Virus record (IMG/VR): IMGVR_UViG_3300025759_000073
Span: 1-64,000 of that record
DNA from: a virus
Strand: one strand, 5' to 3'
Length of the DNA stretch: 64,000 nucleotides
Shown here: one piece after another, positions 566 to 19,491 of the stretch
Position numbering within the stretch: the first letter of the stretch is position 1
Layout: each line of letters starts with the position of its first letter
Translations under genes and position numbers: made by a program
The notes under the pieces: generated by a model
Told to the model about the DNA's origin: nothing
The model's input: the letters and a program-made list of their open reading frames with translations, nothing else
Database searches by the model: none

Positions 566-608
566 AGTCGCATTAATGATATCACCTCACTTTCGGTTCC
601 GCGACTAG

Positions 609-693
609 TGGGGCTGGAGGGACTCGAACCCTCACGCTCTTACGAGCGCCGGATTTTAAATCCGGAGTGTCTACCAAATTCCACCACAGCCCC
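609..693 (-). tRNA. tRNA-Leu (anticodon UAA)
   Basis: The 85-nt minus-strand sequence folds as a class II tRNA. The acceptor stem is GGGGCTG with CAGCCCC, the anticodon stem CCGGA/TCCGG encloses loop TTTAAAA (anticodon TAA), and there is a variable arm CGCTC-GTAA-GAGCG and a T-arm with GGTTCGAGTCC. The discriminator base is A, as expected for Leu. CCA is not encoded and must be added by the host enzyme. It lies 5 nt after tRNA-Met and shares its promoter. Confidence 0.95.
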
Positions 694-698
694 CGAAA

Positions 699-771
699 TG
701 TGCCCGATAGGACTCGAACCTATATCTTACCGCTTATGAGGCGGTGGCATTAACCATTATGCTACAGGCAC
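699..771 (-). tRNA. tRNA-Met-type (anticodon CAU)
   Basis: A 73-nt cloverleaf on the minus strand. The acceptor stem is GTGCCTG with CGGGCAC, the anticodon stem ACCGC/GCGGT encloses loop CTCATAA (anticodon CAT), and the T-arm contains GGTTCGAGTCC. The acceptor stem is fully paired at its end, so it is an elongator type rather than an initiator. A tRNA-Ile with lysidine-modified CAU cannot be excluded by eye. CCA is not encoded. It is the first tRNA behind the promoter at 789-817. Confidence 0.92.
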
Positions 772-778
772 GATCAAA

Positions 779-1000
779 TTACTCATCTAGTATACCATAA
801 CCTGCAACAACTGTCAAGTCAATTGAGTTTCCATCAAAAGAAACCTTCCGTCTGTATATTTTTGCTTTTAGATTTGCAGCTTTGATATCTTTCTTGAGAA
901 ACTTAATGAACTTTTCTCTTTCTTCGTCAGAGTCATGGATGTGATGTGGAACGACTGCCGCCTCGACAAGATTGTTAACGTCTGCTTTCGACCTCGGCAT
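779..1000 (-). CDS. hypothetical small protein
   Basis: A 73-residue protein starting MPRSKADVNN, with AAGGAG seven bases before ATG 1000. The middle is charged (DSDEEREKFIKFLKKD) and the end is beta-like (SIDLTVVAGYGILDE). I do not recognise a family. Its 5' end overlaps the 3' end of the DUF3310 gene by 26 nt, so the two are translationally linked. Its own 3' end contains a perfect sigma-70-type promoter for the tRNAs. Confidence 0.75.
   Translation of the reverse strand: MPRSKADVNNLVEAAVVPHHIHDSDEEREKFIKFLKKDIKAANLKAKIYRRKVSFDGNSIDLTVVAGYGILDE
789..817 (-). promoter_or_regulatory. sigma-70-type promoter for the tRNA pair
   Basis: Read on the minus strand: TTGACA (817-812), a 17-nt spacer, then TATACT (794-789). 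Transcription would start about 10 nt before tRNA-Met. The promoter lies inside the 3' end of the 73-codon gene, so the tRNAs can be made apart from the upstream operon. Sequence and spacing are close to the RpoD consensus; activity is inferred. Confidence 0.8.
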
Positions 1001-1205
1001 CTAAGTTCTCCTTTTGCTTAATAGCATAATCCAAATACCACCTTGCTTTCTTAAGATCTGTTAAAGGATCTTTCTTGTGGTTGTGTCTTGCTATATATTT
1101 TACAACATTTCCTAGGCAAAAGTCAAGCTCCCAATCTTGAATTGCGTCAATAACTTCAATTTTGCCTACATTATAATGCTTTGGATGATTAACTTTTTCT
1201 TTCAT
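975..1205 (-). CDS. DUF3310 family protein
   Basis: A 76-residue protein matching the DUF3310 (SaV-like) phage family. The N-terminal VNHPKHY-x-VGKIEVIDAI is followed by DFCLGNVVKYIARHNHKKDP and LTDLKKARWYLDYAI. The conserved NHPxHY, E-x-I-D and Y-x-x-R-x-x-x-K positions are all present, and the length is typical. The family is often listed as nucleotide-kinase-like, but no firm activity is established. The start overlaps the stop of the upstream gene (ATGA), so translation is coupled. Confidence 0.85.
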   Translation of the reverse strand: MKEKVNHPKHYNVGKIEVIDAIQDWELDFCLGNVVKYIARHNHKKDPLTDLKKARWYLDYAIKQKENLDAEVESRR

Positions 1206-1576
1206 TTAAATCTACTCCCATCTTCAAGCCACACTTCACAATTAAGAGGATTCCCATTTAGCCAGTCGCATTCATATTTTTTTTGCCCATTATCCCACCA
1301 TGCTTCTATTTTGACAACCTCGCCGTGTAGATAGCTTACTCTCTCCTGAAGCATCAATGTCCCTTCTTTTCTGGAATAGAAACTATGTTCTCCATGAAAT
1401 TTCCCACCCACAGTTTGGTATACTACCCTATGGGGATGGTAGTGGGTCATATAATAGTCATTGTCTTCTTCGACGATTTTGATATCATTCTCTTTTAAAA
1501 GTTCTACTTCGGAGAGTAAAGATATTGGAAATTCACCCCCTTCTTTAAGCCACTTGTTAATTTCTTCGGTTCTCAT
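1202..1576 (-). CDS. MORN/YwqK-like repeat protein, hypothetical
   Basis: A 124-residue protein starting MRTEEINKWLKEGGE. I chose this ATG over upstream in-frame codons because it overlaps the stop of the preceding gene (ATGA), as elsewhere in this genome, and the upstream codons lie inside that gene. The second half has imperfect repeats of the type GEVVKIEAWWDNGQKKYE and GNPLNCEVWLEDGSRF, resembling the beta-hairpin MORN/YwqK repeats of antitoxin-like proteins. No function can be assigned. Confidence 0.65.
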   Translation of the reverse strand: MRTEEINKWLKEGGEFPISLLSEVELLKENDIKIVEEDNDYYMTHYHPHRVVYQTVGGKFHGEHSFYSRKEGTLMLQERVSYLHGEVVKIEAWWDNGQKKYECDWLNGNPLNCEVWLEDGSRFK

Positions 1577-1824
1577 CTTTTCTTCATCTTTCTCATTTCT
1601 TTGTTGGATGGTCTGGTTTTCTTTTTCTTTTTTTGACCTTCGAAAAGACCAACTCCGTGAACTCTGCAATATTCTTCAAAGAAGAGATGATTGTTCATGT
1701 CCTTTTCCAAACAAAGATCAGACAATTCCATCCAAACGATTTGCTTGTCTTCCTTGTCTCCATCAATATATTGCTTACAAAGTGAACTTAATTCAGGGTG
1801 TTCTGTGATTTTTATCTTTGACAT
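1573..1824 (-). CDS. hypothetical small protein with basic tail
   Basis: An 83-residue protein starting MSKIKITEHPELSSL, with a strong AAAGGAG before ATG 1824. The N-terminal two thirds is acidic and mixed. The C-terminus is strongly basic (GQKKKKKTRPSNKEMRKMKKR), which could bind nucleic acid. I recognise no family. It is first in the small cluster after tRNA-Glu and is coupled to the next gene by ATGA. Confidence 0.65.
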   Translation of the reverse strand: MSKIKITEHPELSSLCKQYIDGDKEDKQIVWMELSDLCLEKDMNNHLFFEEYCRVHGVGLFEGQKKKKKTRPSNKEMRKMKKR

Positions 1825-1852
1825 TCTATTCTCCTTTGCTGGGAATTAATTG

Positions 1853-1924
1853 TGACTCCTACGGGATTTGAACCCGTGTTACTGATGTGAAAGACCAGCG
1901 TCCTAACCACTAGACGAAGGAGCC
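1853..1924 (-). tRNA. tRNA-Glu (anticodon UUC)
   Basis: A 72-nt cloverleaf on the minus strand. The acceptor stem is GGCTCCT with AGGAGTC, the anticodon stem CTGGT/ATCAG encloses loop CTTTCAC (anticodon TTC), and the T-arm is CGGGTTCAAATCCCG. The discriminator is A and CCA is not encoded. It sits alone between a hairpin terminator and the next small gene, apart from the other two tRNAs. Confidence 0.95.
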
Positions 1925-12598: not shown

Positions 12599-14713
12599 TT
12601 ATGAAGAAAAACCACCAGCAAGAGTCATTTTTACACTATTCAATTTTGCAATTTCATTGCCTAATTTCTTAATTGTTTTTTCCAAATCTTCTTTGCTTTT
12701 GTCTAAGTTTGCAAAGTCAATAGTTACCTTGTAATCTAAGTCGCCAACAACTCTAATTTCATTTAGATTGACGGTTAGCTTTTCTGCTTCTGCGTTTTTC
12801 AACTTTTTCACCGTGTTTACTAACTTTGTTGCTTTTTCTAGTCGACCACCAGCGCCAAACATTCCGCCGATTGCTGAAACTGCCCCCCCTGCCAATGTCA
12901 AAATCCCAGACATAGTTGTCAGGCCAGCAATACCAGCAAAAAGAATTCCTAATTCCTTAACAACATTAAATGCTCCACCCGCTTTTGATAAAGCTTCCAT
13001 CAAGGGAGTTAGACCTTCACTAAGTTTTTTAAAGCCAATACCCAAAGCAGGCATAACTACAGCGCCTAAGAAGTATAAAGCAGTTCCAGCAACTGCCAAC
13101 CCTAAAGCAACAATTCCTAACCCTTTAAGAGCCGCTAGCCCGCCTGCGGCTGCTGCACCGCCTGCGGCTGCACCACCTGCGGCACCGGCAAATCCCAGAG
13201 AACCAAGTAACGCACCAATACCGGTCAAAGCTAGTTTGATGGCCACCAAAGATCCGAGCAGTATCCCCAAGCCAACAGCCAAAGCACGACCTGATTGATC
13301 TGCTTTTTTAAACCCTTCCATTAATCCTGCTAAAAACTTTGCAACTTTTGCAAGAAAATCAATAACAGGCTTGAAGGCGAATGCCAAGTTTTGCATTGCC
13401 ATTTTAAATTGTTCTGAAACTTTTTGTGTTGCTGTTATTCTTTCTTTCATTTCTTCTGCCGAAAGACCAAACTTCTCACCTTGCTTTGTTAGCCTTTCTA
13501 ATTCTTCTGCTTCTTTTTCCTGTTCTGTTCTCAAAAGCTTTTGTGCTTCTGCGACAGAAGAAAGCCCAAGCGACTGTGCGACAAACTTTTTCTCAAAACG
13601 AGAAAGATCTTGGAACCTTTTGCCTGAAAGTGCAATACCTTGACGGATAATATCAACCCTTTCGGACTCCGATGCTCTCAAAAGCTCCAAGGAGTTGAAA
13701 TAGTTGCCACCCAAAGCAGCATTCAACTTTCCAACAGCAGAAGCAGCGCCTTCAAATGTATCAAACTGTTCTGCGAATGCTCTTAGTTTTGACAATTCCA
13801 AGCCTGTTTTCTTTGATTGAATTGCCAATTCTTTGAAAACTTGAATTGCCTTGCCTTTTGTGTGAGCAGCCAAAGATTCCATTGCTGGTCCGAAATCAGA
13901 GTCAATCATTTTTTTGAACCTAGGCCCCAATGCAGAACCCAACCCAAGCAGTTCCTTTTGGGCCTCCATTGCTTGGTCTTGGGTCATTCCCAAGCCTTGA
14001 ACTCCCATCTCCAAGTTCTTTATGAAATTATCCATACCAAGCCGGCTCATTTGACTAGCTAGAGTGCCAATTTCTTTTCTTGTGCTAGCACTTAATGATC
14101 CAAAGGAAGTAAGCTCTCCGGCGGCTGCGTTGAATGATTCTCCAAACTCTTTCATTGTCACACCGGAAAGAGATGCCTGATTCATTCCGTCTGCTAGTTC
14201 TTGATTGTATCTAGACAAGCCACCAGTTAACTTTGCAAGGGCTGCTCTTTGCTCATCATAAGTTTTTGTCGCTGCGATGCTTAGATTAATAAGGTAATTT
14301 AAACCTTTTCCTAGTGCCTCATATGGATTTTTAAGGGCTCCCATTGCCTTTTCTAGCTTTTTATAAACATCTATCTGATTTAAAGTTGTTTTAAAGTTTC
14401 TTTCTTTTGATTCCTGTAAAGCTTCTTCTGATTTTTTAAGTTTTTCGTTGGCTTTTTCTAGTTTTTCATCAAGTTCAAGAATTTCTTTAAGTTTTTTTGT
14501 TCTTTCTTCGTCGTTTTCTGCTGTTTTAGCATCTAGTTTAAGAATTTGTATTTGATTTTCTATTTGTTTAACTTGATTATCCAGTAATTTTTTCTGCACC
14601 TCTGCGGTTTGCTTGGCATTTTTAAGCTTTTCTTCCCGCAGTTCCAAAAGTTTTTTTTCTTCTGCGGCCGCTCTTTTTAGATCTTCTATTTCTTTTATAT
14701 AATCTTCAGCCAT
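12599..14713 (-). CDS. tail tape measure protein
   Basis: A 704-residue protein that would set tail length and pass down the tube. The first 120 residues are a continuous coiled coil (KKLLELREEKLKNAKQTAEV and onward), residues about 125-460 are helical, and residues about 470-620 hold Gly/Ala-rich hydrophobic segments (GILLGSLVAIKLALTGIGAL and a GAAGGAAAGG stretch). This is the usual tape measure pattern. At roughly 1.5 angstrom per residue the length predicts a tail near 100 nm. It lies just after the tail chaperone pair, the standard position, with a CTATTTAT motif 43 nt upstream. Confidence 0.85.
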   Translation of the reverse strand: MAEDYIKEIEDLKRAAAEEKKLLELREEKLKNAKQTAEVQKKLLDNQVKQIENQIQILKLDAKTAENDEERTKKLKEILELDEKLEKANEKLKKSEEALQESKERNFKTTLNQIDVYKKLEKAMGALKNPYEALGKGLNYLINLSIAATKTYDEQRAALAKLTGGLSRYNQELADGMNQASLSGVTMKEFGESFNAAAGELTSFGSLSASTRKEIGTLASQMSRLGMDNFIKNLEMGVQGLGMTQDQAMEAQKELLGLGSALGPRFKKMIDSDFGPAMESLAAHTKGKAIQVFKELAIQSKKTGLELSKLRAFAEQFDTFEGAASAVGKLNAALGGNYFNSLELLRASESERVDIIRQGIALSGKRFQDLSRFEKKFVAQSLGLSSVAEAQKLLRTEQEKEAEELERLTKQGEKFGLSAEEMKERITATQKVSEQFKMAMQNLAFAFKPVIDFLAKVAKFLAGLMEGFKKADQSGRALAVGLGILLGSLVAIKLALTGIGALLGSLGFAGAAGGAAAGGAAAAGGLAALKGLGIVALGLAVAGTALYFLGAVVMPALGIGFKKLSEGLTPLMEALSKAGGAFNVVKELGILFAGIAGLTTMSGILTLAGGAVSAIGGMFGAGGRLEKATKLVNTVKKLKNAEAEKLTVNLNEIRVVGDLDYKVTIDFANLDKSKEDLEKTIKKLGNEIAKLNSVKMTLAGGFSS

Positions 14714-14776: not shown

Positions 14777-14969
14777 TTATTTAGATTTGTAGGATTTTTC
14801 GATTTGTTCGTTCTGGCGTTCGATCTCTTCATTCAATCTTTGAAGAAACCATCTTCTGAGGGTGATAGGCAGGTTGTAAAGTTCAAAAAGGGACCATCCA
14901 CCGTGATACTTCAAGAGGAACATCTCTTCGTATACGTGTTGGATGTATTCGTCACTTAGGCCAAAAAAA
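14777..14969 (-). CDS. tail assembly chaperone extension, probably made by frameshift
   Basis: An open frame of about 61-64 codons overlapping the end of the gp26-like gene. It has no ATG near its 5' end (only TTG at 14974, without a good ribosome site). It encodes GLSDEYIQHVYEEMF, then WSLFELYNLPITLRRWFLQR, a pattern seen in small proteins beside gp26-like genes. The frame is entered naturally if ribosomes slip +1 or -2 on TTTTTTT (14969-14963) nine bases before the gp26 stop. A short G-like product plus a longer GT-like product just before the tape measure is the classic tail chaperone layout. Confidence 0.65.
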
Positions 14970-15791
14970 GTCAACGGTGAGAGGTACCTCGATGACCTCT
15001 AGATGCTCGCACTCCCTACATTCAAACTCTGTAACCATTTGAACATCTGGTGCTAATTTATCATAAACCTTTCTTAAGAACCTTGCATCCGAAGCTGGCA
15101 TATGATCAACAAAGAACTCAATCTTTTTCTTGTCTTCGTCACCGTTGAGAGCAACGATTGTTTCTTTTAATTGATCTGTCAAGGTTGTGTTTTTCTTTTT
15201 CTTTGAATTAAAATCAAAGTTTTTCAAGATCTTCTTTTCTTCCTTGCCTGTCAAAAGCTTCACTTCACAAGTATACTTAACCAAGGGAAGTTGAACAAGA
15301 AAAGTGCCTCTTTCTGTTTTTTGGATCTCTTCCAACTCTTGGCTTTCTTTTGTTTGAAGACATTCTTCAATGTCGTACTCTTTCTTTTCTTTTGCGCCGC
15401 AATTGGGACAAGTTATCTCAACTGTATAGTCCGCTCCATATCCTGCAACTCTGGCATTCAAAAGAATAGCATTTTTGTCTCCAACAAGAAGGTCGTCAAC
15501 CCTCAATCTTTTATCAACCAAAAGAGATTGAATCAAACGATCCAAAACCACTTTCTTTTTGATCAAATCAGGGTTCGTCAAAAGGTCTTCATCTTTAGCT
15601 GTCATCATTCTGATTTCAACTGCGTCAAGACCGTGGAGAGGGTGCCCTTCCAAATAAAACTCTCCCTTGGAAGGAAGTTCAACAAACATTGTAGGAAGGA
15701 CAAAGGAAAATTGATTTTCTGCAAAGGCAGGAGCCGGCGCTTCACTGGTAGGGTGAGCGCCAAGCCGTTCTGAATTGTTTCTTAAAGACAT
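14952..15791 (-). CDS. gp26: gp26-like baseplate/tail assembly chaperone
   Basis: A 279-residue protein of the T4 baseplate gp26 family (T4_baseplate). The conserved N-terminal run LPSKGEFYLEGHPLHGLDAV is followed by EIRMMTAKDEDLLTNPDL, then VGDKNAILLNARVAGYG. It has a zinc-ribbon-like pair CPNC (near residue 130) and CREC (near 262). Longer than T4 gp26 (208). In related phages it acts in baseplate hub and tail assembly and precedes the tape measure. The 3' end carries the T7 slip site. GAGGTGA precedes ATG 15791. Confidence 0.88.
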   Translation of the reverse strand: MSLRNNSERLGAHPTSEAPAPAFAENQFSFVLPTMFVELPSKGEFYLEGHPLHGLDAVEIRMMTAKDEDLLTNPDLIKKKVVLDRLIQSLLVDKRLRVDDLLVGDKNAILLNARVAGYGADYTVEITCPNCGAKEKKEYDIEECLQTKESQELEEIQKTERGTFLVQLPLVKYTCEVKLLTGKEEKKILKNFDFNSKKKKNTTLTDQLKETIVALNGDEDKKKIEFFVDHMPASDARFLRKVYDKLAPDVQMVTEFECRECEHLEVIEVPLTVDFFWPK

Positions 15792-15817: not shown

Positions 15818-16474
15818 TTAAGTGTCCGAGGGAAGGTCACCGCTCATAGTTCTTGCGCGGCTTACTTGTCGGTCTGCATCGGAAGTGAGACCTCCGTAAG
15901 ATTGGTCAAGAGAGCCTCGAAGTCCCGGCTGAATTTCCGCCCAATCATAACGAATGTCGATATTGGGCATAACAAACTCTTCTACATTGTAATCAAAATC
16001 CCCACCAAAGTTAACTTTCGTGATAAAAGGATTGTGGAATGTGTAAGTTTCCAAAACGCGATTCTCTGCATCCAATTGGAAGACCTCCAAGTTGCTCATA
16101 GCGACCACTGCCTTCCCTTTTGTAATTCCGATGGTTGCATCGGGCAAGCTTTTTGGGTAAATATAACCAGCAGCATAAACTGCATTTTGAAGAAACAAAG
16201 CAGCGTTTTGAACATCTCCTTCGTCTGCATAATCTCTTGCGATATCCATAAATTCAATGTTAACAACATTCCATTGCTGAGTTCCAACGGGAAAATGAAA
16301 CTCATGACCCAAGATCTTGTGCTGTTTGTCCGCCATTGTAAGTTCGGGTCGGGTAACTTTCCTTAACAGGTAGGGATAAAGAACCCTACCATTCCCAACC
16401 TCTGCGACAAACTTGAATTGACGCTTTGGCTGAATTGTGCTTTGGTGCCAAAATCTATTCTTTGCTCTAGCCAT
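15818..16474 (-). CDS. gp19: tail tube protein (gp19-like)
   Basis: A 218-residue tail tube subunit. The conserved start FWHQSTIQPKRQFKFVAEV is followed by YLLRKVTRPELTM, GHEFHFPVGTQQWNVVNIEF and a C-terminal FHNPFITKVNFG with DIRYDWAE. These match T4 gp19-type tubes, whose rings stack inside the sheath. Length is slightly above T4 gp19 (163), with an extra flexible tail (QVSRARTMSGDLPSDT). It follows the sheath gene, the normal order. Confidence 0.92.
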   Translation of the reverse strand: MARAKNRFWHQSTIQPKRQFKFVAEVGNGRVLYPYLLRKVTRPELTMADKQHKILGHEFHFPVGTQQWNVVNIEFMDIARDYADEGDVQNAALFLQNAVYAAGYIYPKSLPDATIGITKGKAVVAMSNLEVFQLDAENRVLETYTFHNPFITKVNFGGDFDYNVEEFVMPNIDIRYDWAEIQPGLRGSLDQSYGGLTSDADRQVSRARTMSGDLPSDT

Positions 16475-16518: not shown

Positions 16519-19491
16519 TTATTCTGGAAACTCTGCACCGGTGTTCGTCAGGATGAAGTCCAGAGCAATAAACTCAATTGCTCTTGCCGGCTTAATGAAA
16601 AGTTTCGCATAAAGAATGTTTTGGTCAACAAGGTCAGGAGTAGTAGTTTTGTTGTCCAGAACAAATCTGTAATCTACCAGACCTAATCCGTCCTTCACTT
16701 CTTCCAGAACTTCGTTTGCTCTTCTAGAGAAATCCGACCACGTTGCTTGAACGTTCTGTTCGAAAAGTACAGTTTTTGCGATTGCCGAAATTCTTCTTCT
16801 CAGGAAGATAAGCAGTCGTCGAACATTGATTCTATCCAGCGCCGATCTTTCTAATTGAAGAGTCTTCTGCCCAAAGACCACGATACCTTCCGAGGGGAAA
16901 TTAGCAATTGGGTTAACTCCATTGTCGTAAAGGTCGTCTCTTTCAGAAGAGGTCAATCTATCTTTCACATTGACAACAGTCACGCCGGCCAGACCGGAAG
17001 AAAGACCGCCCCGATTGAAGCCAGCCGGAGCAAACCAAACATCGGAAGTTTGCTTAACTCGTCCAAACACACCAAGCATTGGGACAGAGGGAGGAACAGC
17101 AACAGTCGCATCATTTCTTGTATCAACAATGTCAACCCAAGGATAGAAAGTACAAGCGTAAGAGTGATTGACTTGTGCCAAGTCACCTCGCCTATGATTG
17201 ATGGCACCAGAGACGGTTCCTCTTTTGGCATCTGTGCCAACTTCAGAGGGTTTGAGAACTTCAAGCGGACGGTATTGTGAATCCAAATCAAGAACTGCTA
17301 GCATATCACCTCTTTCGCGAGCATAGTCAGCCAGTTGAACGTTCAAGTTGGGCTCCATAAGACCGGGAACTGCTGCAACATCTGCATCCAAGAATTCCGG
17401 ATCTTTGAACATTTTGATAGCCGTGAGAACCGAGTACCAAGCATAGTTTCCACGTCCATCAGTAGAAGCGCCGCCATCCAACTCATCAATCGAGAAAGGA
17501 TCTTTTTGTTTGATATCAACACCATCCAAGCCGCCGTGCAGAGGCATTGTGAATTTATTATAACCAGCATCCAAAACAGTTTTCCAACCTTCGGAAGTGT
17601 TGCTGTAGAGTCTCACCAACTCAGCAGGGGCTTTACCAGCGCCTTCTGCTTTATAATAAATACCGGTAGCAGAAAGGGAACTTCCGCCAGTTCGGTTTGT
17701 GCTAGCATAGACTGCATCATCTTGCCACCCTTTTGTAGAGGAAGAAGCTTGTCGAACATCATCCAAAGAGAACGCGAAGGTATGAACAGTGCCGGTTCCT
17801 TTTTCCCAAGAATCGCGAGCAGCGCCCGAACCATCACCTTCCAGAGGGTAAGTAAGGTCTGAATAAGCTCTAGAATAAAAGCGACCGGTATCTTCGCGTG
17901 TCGTTCGAACGCCAAAATAAGCCCCTCTTGCCAATCCACGGGTAGCGTTTGAAGCAGTCACCCGAAGAAGATAGTCTGGCCATTCCAAAGAGCCAGTGAA
18001 AACAGTGCCATTAGAAGTAATACACTTAGCAACCCCAGTAGTATCTTGACTGTATGCTACCGAGGAGGATGCGTAAGAGCCAGACCAGTTAAGATATCCA
18101 GTAGCGGGATCAAGTGCGCCAGAGCAAATCTGAAACTTTTGTCGTCGCGCTGGTCCCAAGAAGCCAAACGGAACCAGTTCCGGATTTGCGTTACCTGCCT
18201 TGACAGTTGGGTGCATTTCAACTCGAATATAACGAGATTGGTTTGGAAACTCTCCAACAACATCAAACTTGTCAGTTGTTTGATCCAATTTAAGATACTG
18301 ATCTCCAATCCTTCTAGCGACATAATCAGAAGAGCGTGGATTAAGGTTCAAATCATCAAATGCTTCCAAGATTTCCGGAGCATCATCTCTATCACCAACC
18401 CCTCGGACTTGAACACTGAAAGTAGGATAAGGATCGGCAGCAGAGTCCACCTTTGTATAGCGAATATTTGAAATGGAAACTTTAAGGTTTTTCGAAGCCC
18501 AGCTTCCTTCCGTAAGACCAACCAAGCGGAAAAGTCTCTGAGGAGGGTTATCAATCGGGTCAAAAGAACCTGACGCTCCCAGATCTTGCGAAAATACATA
18601 TCCAGTCTTTGCAGCTTGTGCTGGGTATTGATAGTCCGATTTGTTGTTCTCGGTTTCTTTATCCAAGGCTGTAATGAAAGCTAACGTATTTGAATTTGCA
18701 TCTGCATCTGCTAATTTTTTAATATTATCTTCAAAAGTCTCACCAACCCAGAAAAGTTCTCTTTTATCATTCAAGGCAGAGTTACAAGCAACAGGGCTTG
18801 TGTTCATTGCTTTGCGAATAAAGTTTGCCTTATCAGGGTTCAAAGAGACTTTATATTGCTTAGTTTGGATCTCATCATATCCAGCGGCAATAGAAGATGC
18901 AAAGTAAATATCGATGTCTGCCGTGTTCATCTTTTCAGAGAATGGAAACAATTTATGAGTTTTGGCGTTTGACGCGGTGCCGACAGAGAGAGAAGCTTTT
19001 TCATCAACGTAGAAAACTGCCGCAAGGGAGCCGGTTCCGTGATTGCCACTAGAAGCCGAAGGCAGCAGCCAAAGACCATAAGCACCACCGTTAGCCGCTA
19101 AAGCATCCGAAGGTGCGATCACGGTCGTTTTCCAACCAGCATAGCCATCAGCAGTTGGTGTTGGGTGTTGATATCCACCCAGTCGGATAAAAGTGACAGG
19201 AGCAGCATTTCTCAGATAAGCAACAGCGGCGTGTGCTCCATAGTGGGGGGAAGTTGTGTTTTCATCTCGCCATCCATCACCTGCCGAAAGACCACCAGCA
19301 GCAGGAACTCCAAAAACTCGAACAAATTCATCAACAGAACTGACAACGACCGGCTTCATAATTGGACCTTGCTGAGAACGACCAACGATCACAGGGCCAA
19401 CCTCTGAAAGAACTGGGTTATCGATCACACTTTGATCGATTTCTTCAATTCGAATTCCGGGGGATCTAAATCTAAAATTTTTAGCGGACAT
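16519..19491 (-). CDS. gp18: contractile tail sheath protein (gp18-like), enlarged
   Basis: A 990-residue sheath subunit. The N-terminus SPGIRIEEIDQSVI, then VGPVIVGRSQQGP and EFVRVFG, is the sheath signature. The C-terminal core (ALDRINVRRLLIFLRRRISA, then the last 60 residues with YRFVLDNKTTTPDLV and PARAIEFIALDFI) forms the inner contractile domain. T4 gp18 has 659 residues, so the middle carries about 300 extra, probably as outer protrusion domains. A CTATTTAT motif lies 40 nt before ATG 19491, with AGGAG before the start. Confidence 0.95.
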   Translation of the reverse strand: MSAKNFRFRSPGIRIEEIDQSVIDNPVLSEVGPVIVGRSQQGPIMKPVVVSSVDEFVRVFGVPAAGGLSAGDGWRDENTTSPHYGAHAAVAYLRNAAPVTFIRLGGYQHPTPTADGYAGWKTTVIAPSDALAANGGAYGLWLLPSASSGNHGTGSLAAVFYVDEKASLSVGTASNAKTHKLFPFSEKMNTADIDIYFASSIAAGYDEIQTKQYKVSLNPDKANFIRKAMNTSPVACNSALNDKRELFWVGETFEDNIKKLADADANSNTLAFITALDKETENNKSDYQYPAQAAKTGYVFSQDLGASGSFDPIDNPPQRLFRLVGLTEGSWASKNLKVSISNIRYTKVDSAADPYPTFSVQVRGVGDRDDAPEILEAFDDLNLNPRSSDYVARRIGDQYLKLDQTTDKFDVVGEFPNQSRYIRVEMHPTVKAGNANPELVPFGFLGPARRQKFQICSGALDPATGYLNWSGSYASSSVAYSQDTTGVAKCITSNGTVFTGSLEWPDYLLRVTASNATRGLARGAYFGVRTTREDTGRFYSRAYSDLTYPLEGDGSGAARDSWEKGTGTVHTFAFSLDDVRQASSSTKGWQDDAVYASTNRTGGSSLSATGIYYKAEGAGKAPAELVRLYSNTSEGWKTVLDAGYNKFTMPLHGGLDGVDIKQKDPFSIDELDGGASTDGRGNYAWYSVLTAIKMFKDPEFLDADVAAVPGLMEPNLNVQLADYARERGDMLAVLDLDSQYRPLEVLKPSEVGTDAKRGTVSGAINHRRGDLAQVNHSYACTFYPWVDIVDTRNDATVAVPPSVPMLGVFGRVKQTSDVWFAPAGFNRGGLSSGLAGVTVVNVKDRLTSSERDDLYDNGVNPIANFPSEGIVVFGQKTLQLERSALDRINVRRLLIFLRRRISAIAKTVLFEQNVQATWSDFSRRANEVLEEVKDGLGLVDYRFVLDNKTTTPDLVDQNILYAKLFIKPARAIEFIALDFILTNTGAEFPE

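What the first reader, a model, noticed from the sequence alone, without database searches (positions are those of the whole stretch)
14952..14974. Probable programmed +1 or -2 frameshift in the tail assembly chaperone
The gp26-like frame ends GAC TTT TTT TGG CCT AAG TGA. A run of seven T (14969-14963) lies nine bases before the stop. The next open frame has no ATG at its start and joins naturally by +1 (or -2) slippage; the -1 frame stops at once (TAA). The downstream part carries the NLPITLRRWF pattern and the tape measure follows. Conserved frameshifts before the tape measure are known for tail chaperones, mostly -1, and -2 in Mu. The fusion would have about 337 residues.
Basis: partly seen in the sequence, partly recalled or inferred. 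Interest (0 to 1): 0.75.

Follow-up and report, generated by a model that had tools for sequence, protein, structure and literature searches.

The report
Conserved +1 frameshift in tail chaperone
A phage gene for a tail-building helper protein ends at a run of seven T's where some ribosomes appear to skip one base, so the same gene makes a short and a long version; the site is unchanged in dozens of distant relatives, and it adds a forward-shift variant to a trick already known in T4-like phages.

Summary
The gp26-like ORF (15791-14952, minus strand) ends GAC TTT TTT TGG CCT AAG TGA. The +1 frame carries a conserved 63-residue domain just before the tape measure gene. T7GG(C/T)CT lies at the same place and phase in all 81 relatives examined, 49 of them non-redundant. 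On a tree, the two Phe codons show no codon change, whereas other conserved columns average 14. Ten lineages lack any ATG/GTG/TTG in the second frame; in one it is closed by TAG two codons before the site. The -1 frame is shut. Relatives reach the same fusion at different sites: CTT TGG and TTT C (+1), or T TTT TTC (-1, 80/80 cyanophage loci). This favours ribosomal +1 over -2 or transcriptional slippage. The short protein is T4_baseplate/gp26 family; AlphaFold models of it and of its cyanophage homologue best match HK97 gp13 and similar tail assembly chaperones. The fusion aligns end to end with cyanophage fusions, and those with T4 gp51. So this is a TAC-N/TAC-NC pair. That gp26/gp51 are the T4-like chaperones, some by frameshift, was published in 2022. 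New here are the +1 direction in this large clade and a conserved GGAGG 17 nt upstream. No expression data exist.

The parts
14952..15791 (-). Short product, TAC-N (gp26-like), 279 aa, ends ...VDFFWPK*
   Evidence: PF12322 T4_baseplate E=2e-10 (27/27 clade members match); phrog_150 E=1e-16; AF2 pLDDT 84.5, top VIA-align matches 3klu Z 5.8 and HK97 gp13 2ob9 Z 5.3, next 3.5
14958..14969 (-). Slip site TTTTTTTGGCCT, read TTT TTT TGG CCT in frame 0 and TTT TTT GGC CT in the +1 frame
   Evidence: 81/81 relatives have T7; zero codon changes on tree at both TTT codons
14952..14954 (-). TGA stop of the short product; begins 15 nt (65 loci) or 18 nt (16 loci) after the first T of T7
14777..14968 (-). 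+1-frame extension (TAC-C domain, 63 aa, FFGLSDEY...NLPITLRRWF...), no usable conserved start
   Evidence: DUF6760 E=1e-4 below cutoff
14987..14990 (-). Upstream SD-like element (cGAGG here; GGAGG in 40/49 lineages), 17 nt before T7; possible stimulator
   Evidence: Glu codon is GAG in 43/43, zero changes on tree; GGAGG elsewhere 16 in 38,430 nt
12599..14713 (-). Tape measure protein, 704 aa, directly downstream
   Evidence: phrog_4704 E=4e-4
15818..16474 (-). Tail tube protein, directly upstream (context)
   Evidence: phrog_4542 E=2e-13

Best explanation
The gene is a T4-type tail assembly chaperone expressed by programmed +1 ribosomal frameshifting. Most ribosomes finish the gp26-like short form (TAC-N, 279 aa). 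A fraction, paused with tRNA-Phe on the second UUU in the P site and the uncommon UGG codon in the A site, move forward one base, re-pair perfectly on UUU, and continue to make a 337-aa long form (TAC-NC) carrying a small C-terminal domain. As in lambda gpG/gpGT, the short form would coat the tape measure protein and the long form recruit tail tube subunits. Shown here: conserved site, phase, frame, absence of a start codon, and homology of both parts to known TAC proteins. Inferred: actual slippage, its efficiency, the P-site mechanism and the chaperone role.
For: (1) T7GG(C/T)CT at the same place in 81/81 relatives, 49 non-redundant at <93% nt. (2) Of 73 conserved degenerate codon columns, only four show zero codon changes on a tree: both TTT codons, the CCT after TGG, and the upstream GAG; the average is 14.4 changes (lowest other two-fold column 5). 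(3) No conserved start: 10/49 lineages have no ATG/GTG/TTG from the upstream stop to codon 8 of ORF2; L035 has TAG two codons before the site. (4) The base before T7 is never T (0/48; background GAT:GAC 604:277), which avoids the -1 heptamer U_UUU_UUU; cyanophages, which use -1, always have T there (80/80). (5) Same fusion at other sites: Microcystis phage Mel-JY01 T7GG, Flavobacterium immuto clade TTT CTT TGG 24/24, GXN1 and LR756508 TTT C. (6) Fused window clade vs fused cyanophage: hhalign E=8e-10, collinear across the junction; fused cyanophage vs T4 gp51 E=5e-15. (7) Two independent AF2 models place HK97 gp13 and YqbN or RBSTP2171 top; PMC9603447 calls these three tail assembly chaperones. 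(8) TGG is rarer than GGC in the tail genes, 25 vs 74.
Against: No protein or reporter data. No conserved RNA structure around the site, and UGG is not a stop, so the pause is unexplained. The GGAGG lies 17 nt from T7, farther than the SD elements of RF2 (about 3 nt) or dnaX (about 10 nt) (spacings from general knowledge). UUU_U slips less than CUU_U in E. coli tests (PMC5009743). -2 at T7 is not excluded by sequence alone. TAC fold matches have Z 5-7, and Foldseek alone gave no significant PDB match.
Confidence: 0.8

Rival explanations
1. Programmed -2 ribosomal frameshift at the same T7, as in phage Mu's chaperone: P-site tRNA-Phe moves back two bases, giving one extra Phe.
For: T7 allows perfect -2 re-pairing from the second UUU; -2 is used by Mu (PMC5009743).
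Against: Related phages in the +1/-2 clades use TTT CTA and TTC TTT CGT, where -2 would put tRNA-Phe on ACU or UCU, while +1 gives UUC. At CTT TGG, +1 is the well-known RF2-type shift, although -2 pairing is not much worse there.
Confidence: 0.09
2. Transcriptional slippage on T7: RNA polymerase drops one U (or adds two), and normal translation of altered mRNA gives the fusion.
For: Run of exactly seven T, never eight; such slippage is used by other genes (PMC5009743).
Against: Sister clades have no homopolymer at the site (TTTCTTTGG, TTCTTTC, CTTTC), yet make the same join. Strict codon phase and opposite constraint on the preceding base in -1 and +1 clades fit ribosomes. No conserved upstream hairpin.
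Confidence: 0.06
3. The small ORF is a separate gene translated from its own start (TTG at 14974 or an internal codon), perhaps using the GGAGG as its ribosome site.
For: A TTG exists at 14974 in this window and its close kin; conserved GGAGG upstream; some distant relatives (S-SCSM1, Cygsa01) do have an ATG near the start.
Against: No start codon is conserved; 10/49 lineages have none, and the frame is closed just upstream in several. The conserved residues FFGLSDEY start exactly at T7. Independent initiation would not explain invariant TTT TTT.
Confidence: 0.03
4. Sequencing error or decayed gene.
For: None found.
Against: Same junction in 81 contigs, and the C-terminal domain stays conserved.
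Confidence: 0.005

Closest known systems
T4-like TAC-N/TAC-NC (T4 gp26 and gp51; frameshifted versions in several T4-like groups; Vladimirov, Gautam & Davidson, Virology 2022, cited in PMC12846349 and PMC10885494)
   Same: Same family (PF12322, phrog_150); short form plus long form with C-terminal domain; position near the tape measure gene; fusion collinear with cyanophage fusions and those with T4 gp51.
   Different: T4 encodes the two forms as separate genes; cyanophages use -1 at U_UUU_UUC. This clade uses the +1 frame at UUU_UUU_UGG. The 2022 paper could not be read here, so whether it lists +1 cases is unknown.
Lambda gpG/gpGT and HK97 gp13/gp14 type chaperones
   Same: Short/long pair by frameshift before the tape measure gene; N-terminal domain of the predicted structure best matches HK97 gp13 and YqbN.
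   Different: -1 shift; no recognisable sequence similarity; gp26-like protein is much longer, with two CxxC pairs.
Haloarchaeal myovirus HSTV-2 tail chaperone
   Same: Tail chaperone very likely made by +1 frameshift (review PMC5009743).
   Different: Different phage group; slip site not compared here.
Phage Mu gp41/gp42
   Same: Net +1 frame reached near the end of a tail chaperone gene of a contractile-tail phage.
   Different: Shift is -2; slip site is G-rich (from memory).
E. coli release factor 2 (prfB)
   Same: P-site +1 slip on CUU_U; immuto clade uses CUU_UGG, this clade UUU_UGG; SD-like element upstream.
   Different: RF2 pauses at a UGA stop with the SD about 3 nt away; here the A-site codon is UGG and the GGAGG is 17 nt away.

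Membership tests
T4-type tail assembly chaperone (gp26/gp51, PF12322/phrog_150) | Sequence match to the family | tested here: met
   PF12322 41.1 bits vs cutoff 24.5; 27/27 clade members; phrog_150 E=1e-16
T4-type tail assembly chaperone (gp26/gp51, PF12322/phrog_150) | Short and long form sharing the N-terminal part, long form with TAC-C domain | tested here: met
   Coding potential only: fused frame collinear with cyanophage fusion (E=8e-10), weak direct match to gp51
T4-type tail assembly chaperone (gp26/gp51, PF12322/phrog_150) | Gene next to tape measure gene | tested here: met
   Tail tube upstream, tape measure downstream
Phage tail assembly chaperone fold | N-terminal domain like HK97 gp13 | tested here: met
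   Top matches 3klu Z 5.8 and 2ob9 Z 5.3, next 3.5; cyanophage homologue 2ob9 Z 7.1 and 3fgx Z 6.2, next 2.4. Z below 8, so supportive, not proof
Phage tail assembly chaperone fold | Binds tape measure protein, absent from mature virion | not testable with these tools
   Needs biochemistry
Programmed ribosomal +1 frameshift | Conserved slip site at conserved phase beyond amino-acid constraint | tested here: met
Programmed ribosomal +1 frameshift | Second frame open, conserved, without its own conserved start | tested here: met
Programmed ribosomal +1 frameshift | Shift is +1 rather than -2 | tested here: inconclusive
   Relatives favour +1; window site alone allows both
Programmed ribosomal +1 frameshift | Stimulatory element | tested here: inconclusive
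   GGAGG conserved 17 nt upstream, role unknown; no conserved RNA structure
Programmed ribosomal +1 frameshift | Fusion protein detected | not testable with these tools
   No proteome available
DUF6760 (PF20546) | Score over curated cut-off | tested here: not met
   22.7 bits vs 27; at most a distant relative

The most novel reading that the evidence does not exclude
T4-type tail chaperones have switched the direction of programmed frameshifting (-1 to +1, or the reverse) while keeping the same fusion, and the +1 clade uses a new kind of signal: a P-site UUU_U slip before a sense UGG codon, helped by a GGAGG element at an unusually long distance (17 nt).
Probability: 0.4. Interest if true: 0.6.

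Novelty: new variant of a known kind. Interest (0 to 1): 0.45.

Why it matters
It shows that one chaperone family reaches the same short/long pair by at least three routes (+1 shift, -1 shift, separate genes in T4), with the base before the slip run constrained in opposite ways in the two shift directions. That makes a natural test of what sets frameshift direction. It also corrects annotation: current records call the second part a separate hypothetical or 'baseplate hub assembly catalyst' gene, often from an internal ATG, and so miss the long chaperone.

Tried and rejected
RNA structure up- or downstream of the site: none conserved. An alternative reading of the upstream element as a terminator-like hairpin for transcriptional slippage, suggested by single sequences, was not supported by alignment folding. 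Independent start for ORF2: rejected. DUF6760 membership: below cut-off. Solved-structure sequence search: nothing convincing. Foldseek on the PDB without the second aligner: no significant match, HK97 gp13 at rank 11. Genome-collection scan for hosts: three MAG contigs with the same site, probably phage contigs, so no host assigned. The immuto CTT site was first taken as proof against -2; on checking the pairing it is not decisive, and the argument now rests on the TTT C sites. Literature: open-access searches did not find T4 gp26 frameshifting directly; the 2022 paper was found only as a citation.

Full report
What is in the sequence. On the minus strand, the gp26-like ORF runs from 15791 to 14952 and ends GTT GAC TTT TTT TGG CCT AAG TGA. 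Seven T's lie at 14969-14963, and the stop begins 8 bases later. The +1 frame is open for 63 codons after the T-run and ends at 14777; the tape measure gene starts at 14713. The -1 frame stops after three codons. In-frame TTTTTTT occurs once in 4,237 codons of the window's tail genes, here.

What the proteins are. The first ORF matches PF12322 T4_baseplate (E=2e-10) and phrog_150 baseplate hub (E=1e-16). The neighbours are a tail sheath, a tail tube and a tape measure protein. The small domain has a sub-threshold match to DUF6760.

Conservation. A search of viral contigs with the small domain gave 202 relatives, of which the best 80 were fetched. In all 81 loci examined (these plus Mel-JY01), seven T's followed by GG(C/T)CT stand at the same place. 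The frame relation is the same, and ORF1 stops 15 or 18 nt after the first T. The search pattern used degenerate Phe codons, so it did not impose T's. After removing near-copies, 49 lineages remain. Among 73 well-conserved degenerate codon columns of ORF1, parsimony on a tree gives on average 14.4 codon changes. Only four columns have none: the two TTT codons, the CCT after TGG (its last base lies in an ORF2 Leu codon), and a GAG codon seven codons upstream. The base before T7 is never T, although Asp is usually GAT in these genes. That would avoid U_UUU_UUU, a canonical -1 heptamer that leads to an immediate stop.

No separate start. Ten of 49 lineages have no ATG, GTG or TTG in the ORF2 frame between the upstream stop and codon 8; 37 have no ATG there. 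In L035 the ORF2 frame is closed by TAG two codons before the T-run. The window's TTG at 14974 is found only in its closest kin.

Other members of the family. Microcystis phage Mel-JY01 has AAC TTT TTT TGG CCT. Flavobacterium immuto-type phages have TTT CTT TGG CCT in 24 of 24 loci. Phage GXN1 has TTC TTT CGT CCC C, and the large phage LR756508 has TTT CTA. All open the +1 frame into the same domain. Cyanophages instead have U_UUU_UUC in 80 of 80 loci, with GAGGG or GAAGG-type sequence 9 nt upstream and a -1 extension that matches phrog_634, the family of the C-terminal part of T4 gp51. Vibrio phage Bakedbeans, Agrobacterium phage Atu_ph07, Stenotrophomonas phage RAS14 and LR756511 also fit -1. 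T4 itself has gp26 (short) and gp51 (long) as separate genes. Profile comparison aligns the window-clade fusion to the cyanophage fusion along its whole length (E=8e-10), and the cyanophage fusion to T4 gp51 across the junction (E=5e-15); window clade to gp51 directly is weak. A tree of the gp26 domain puts T4 gp26 and gp51 together (93/89) near the cyanophages; +1 and -1 members need a few switches, with several long branches.

Function. AlphaFold models of the window's short protein (pLDDT 84.5) and of the cyanophage homologue (84.0) were compared with solved structures. The best matches were YqbN 3klu (Z 5.8) and HK97 gp13 2ob9 (Z 5.3) for the first, and 2ob9 (Z 7.1) and RBSTP2171 3fgx (Z 6.2) for the second. 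Unrelated chains score 3.5 and 2.4 at most. All three are described as phage tail assembly chaperones in PMC9603447. The N-terminal part therefore likely has the tail assembly chaperone fold.

Mechanism. I favour +1 slippage of P-site tRNA-Phe from UUU to UUU with UGG waiting in the A site. -2 at T7 would pair as well, but the related sites TTT CTA and TTC TTT CGT pair well only with +1. Transcriptional slippage is unlikely because sister clades have no T-run. A GGAGG element 17 nt upstream is present in 40 of 49 lineages against 16 occurrences in 38,430 nt elsewhere. Its position is too far for the known RF2-type effect, so its role is open. No RNA structure was found.

Novelty. A 2016 review states that the frameshift is conserved in long-tailed phages except T4, and that +1 is very likely used by the halovirus HSTV-2 (PMC5009743). 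Vladimirov, Gautam and Davidson (Virology 2022) identified the tail assembly chaperones of T4-like phages; citing papers report separate short and long genes in some, and poly-T -1 sites in others. I could not read that paper; from memory its abstract names genes 26 and 51. The chaperone family and its frameshift are therefore known. The +1 direction in this large, mostly uncultured clade, the opposite constraint on the preceding base, and the distant GGAGG are the new points, subject to what that paper already lists.

Noticed in passing
L105-L184; e.g. L101:3232-3369 (S-RIM8 AOO10825.1): Cyanophage 'baseplate hub assembly catalyst' genes can be annotated from an internal ATG; the conserved frame starts at the U_UUU_UUC site within gp26, so the annotated N-terminus is probably wrong.
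   Followed up: yes
L100 (Synechococcus phage S-SCSM1) and L103 (Pseudomonas phage Cygsa01): The small domain has its own ATG close to the gp26 stop and no fitting -1 site; these may have lost the frameshift, or in S-SCSM1 shifted frame by an indel.
   Followed up: partly
window 14987-14990, and the related loci at -22 to -18 of T7: GGAGG conserved at nucleotide level 17 nt before the slip site, beyond codon needs, with unknown role.
   Followed up: partly
window 16519-19491: The tail sheath ORF is 990 aa, long for a sheath protein; the conserved Pfam sheath domains lie in its C-terminal part.
   Followed up: no
L216 (CP070664.1, candidate division WOR-3 MAG): A phage tail locus with the same slip site appears joined through runs of N into a bacterial MAG chromosome, probably a scaffolding or binning error.
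   Followed up: partly
window 608-1924: Three phage tRNA genes (Leu-TAA, Met-CAT, Glu-TTC); none for Phe or Trp.
   Followed up: no
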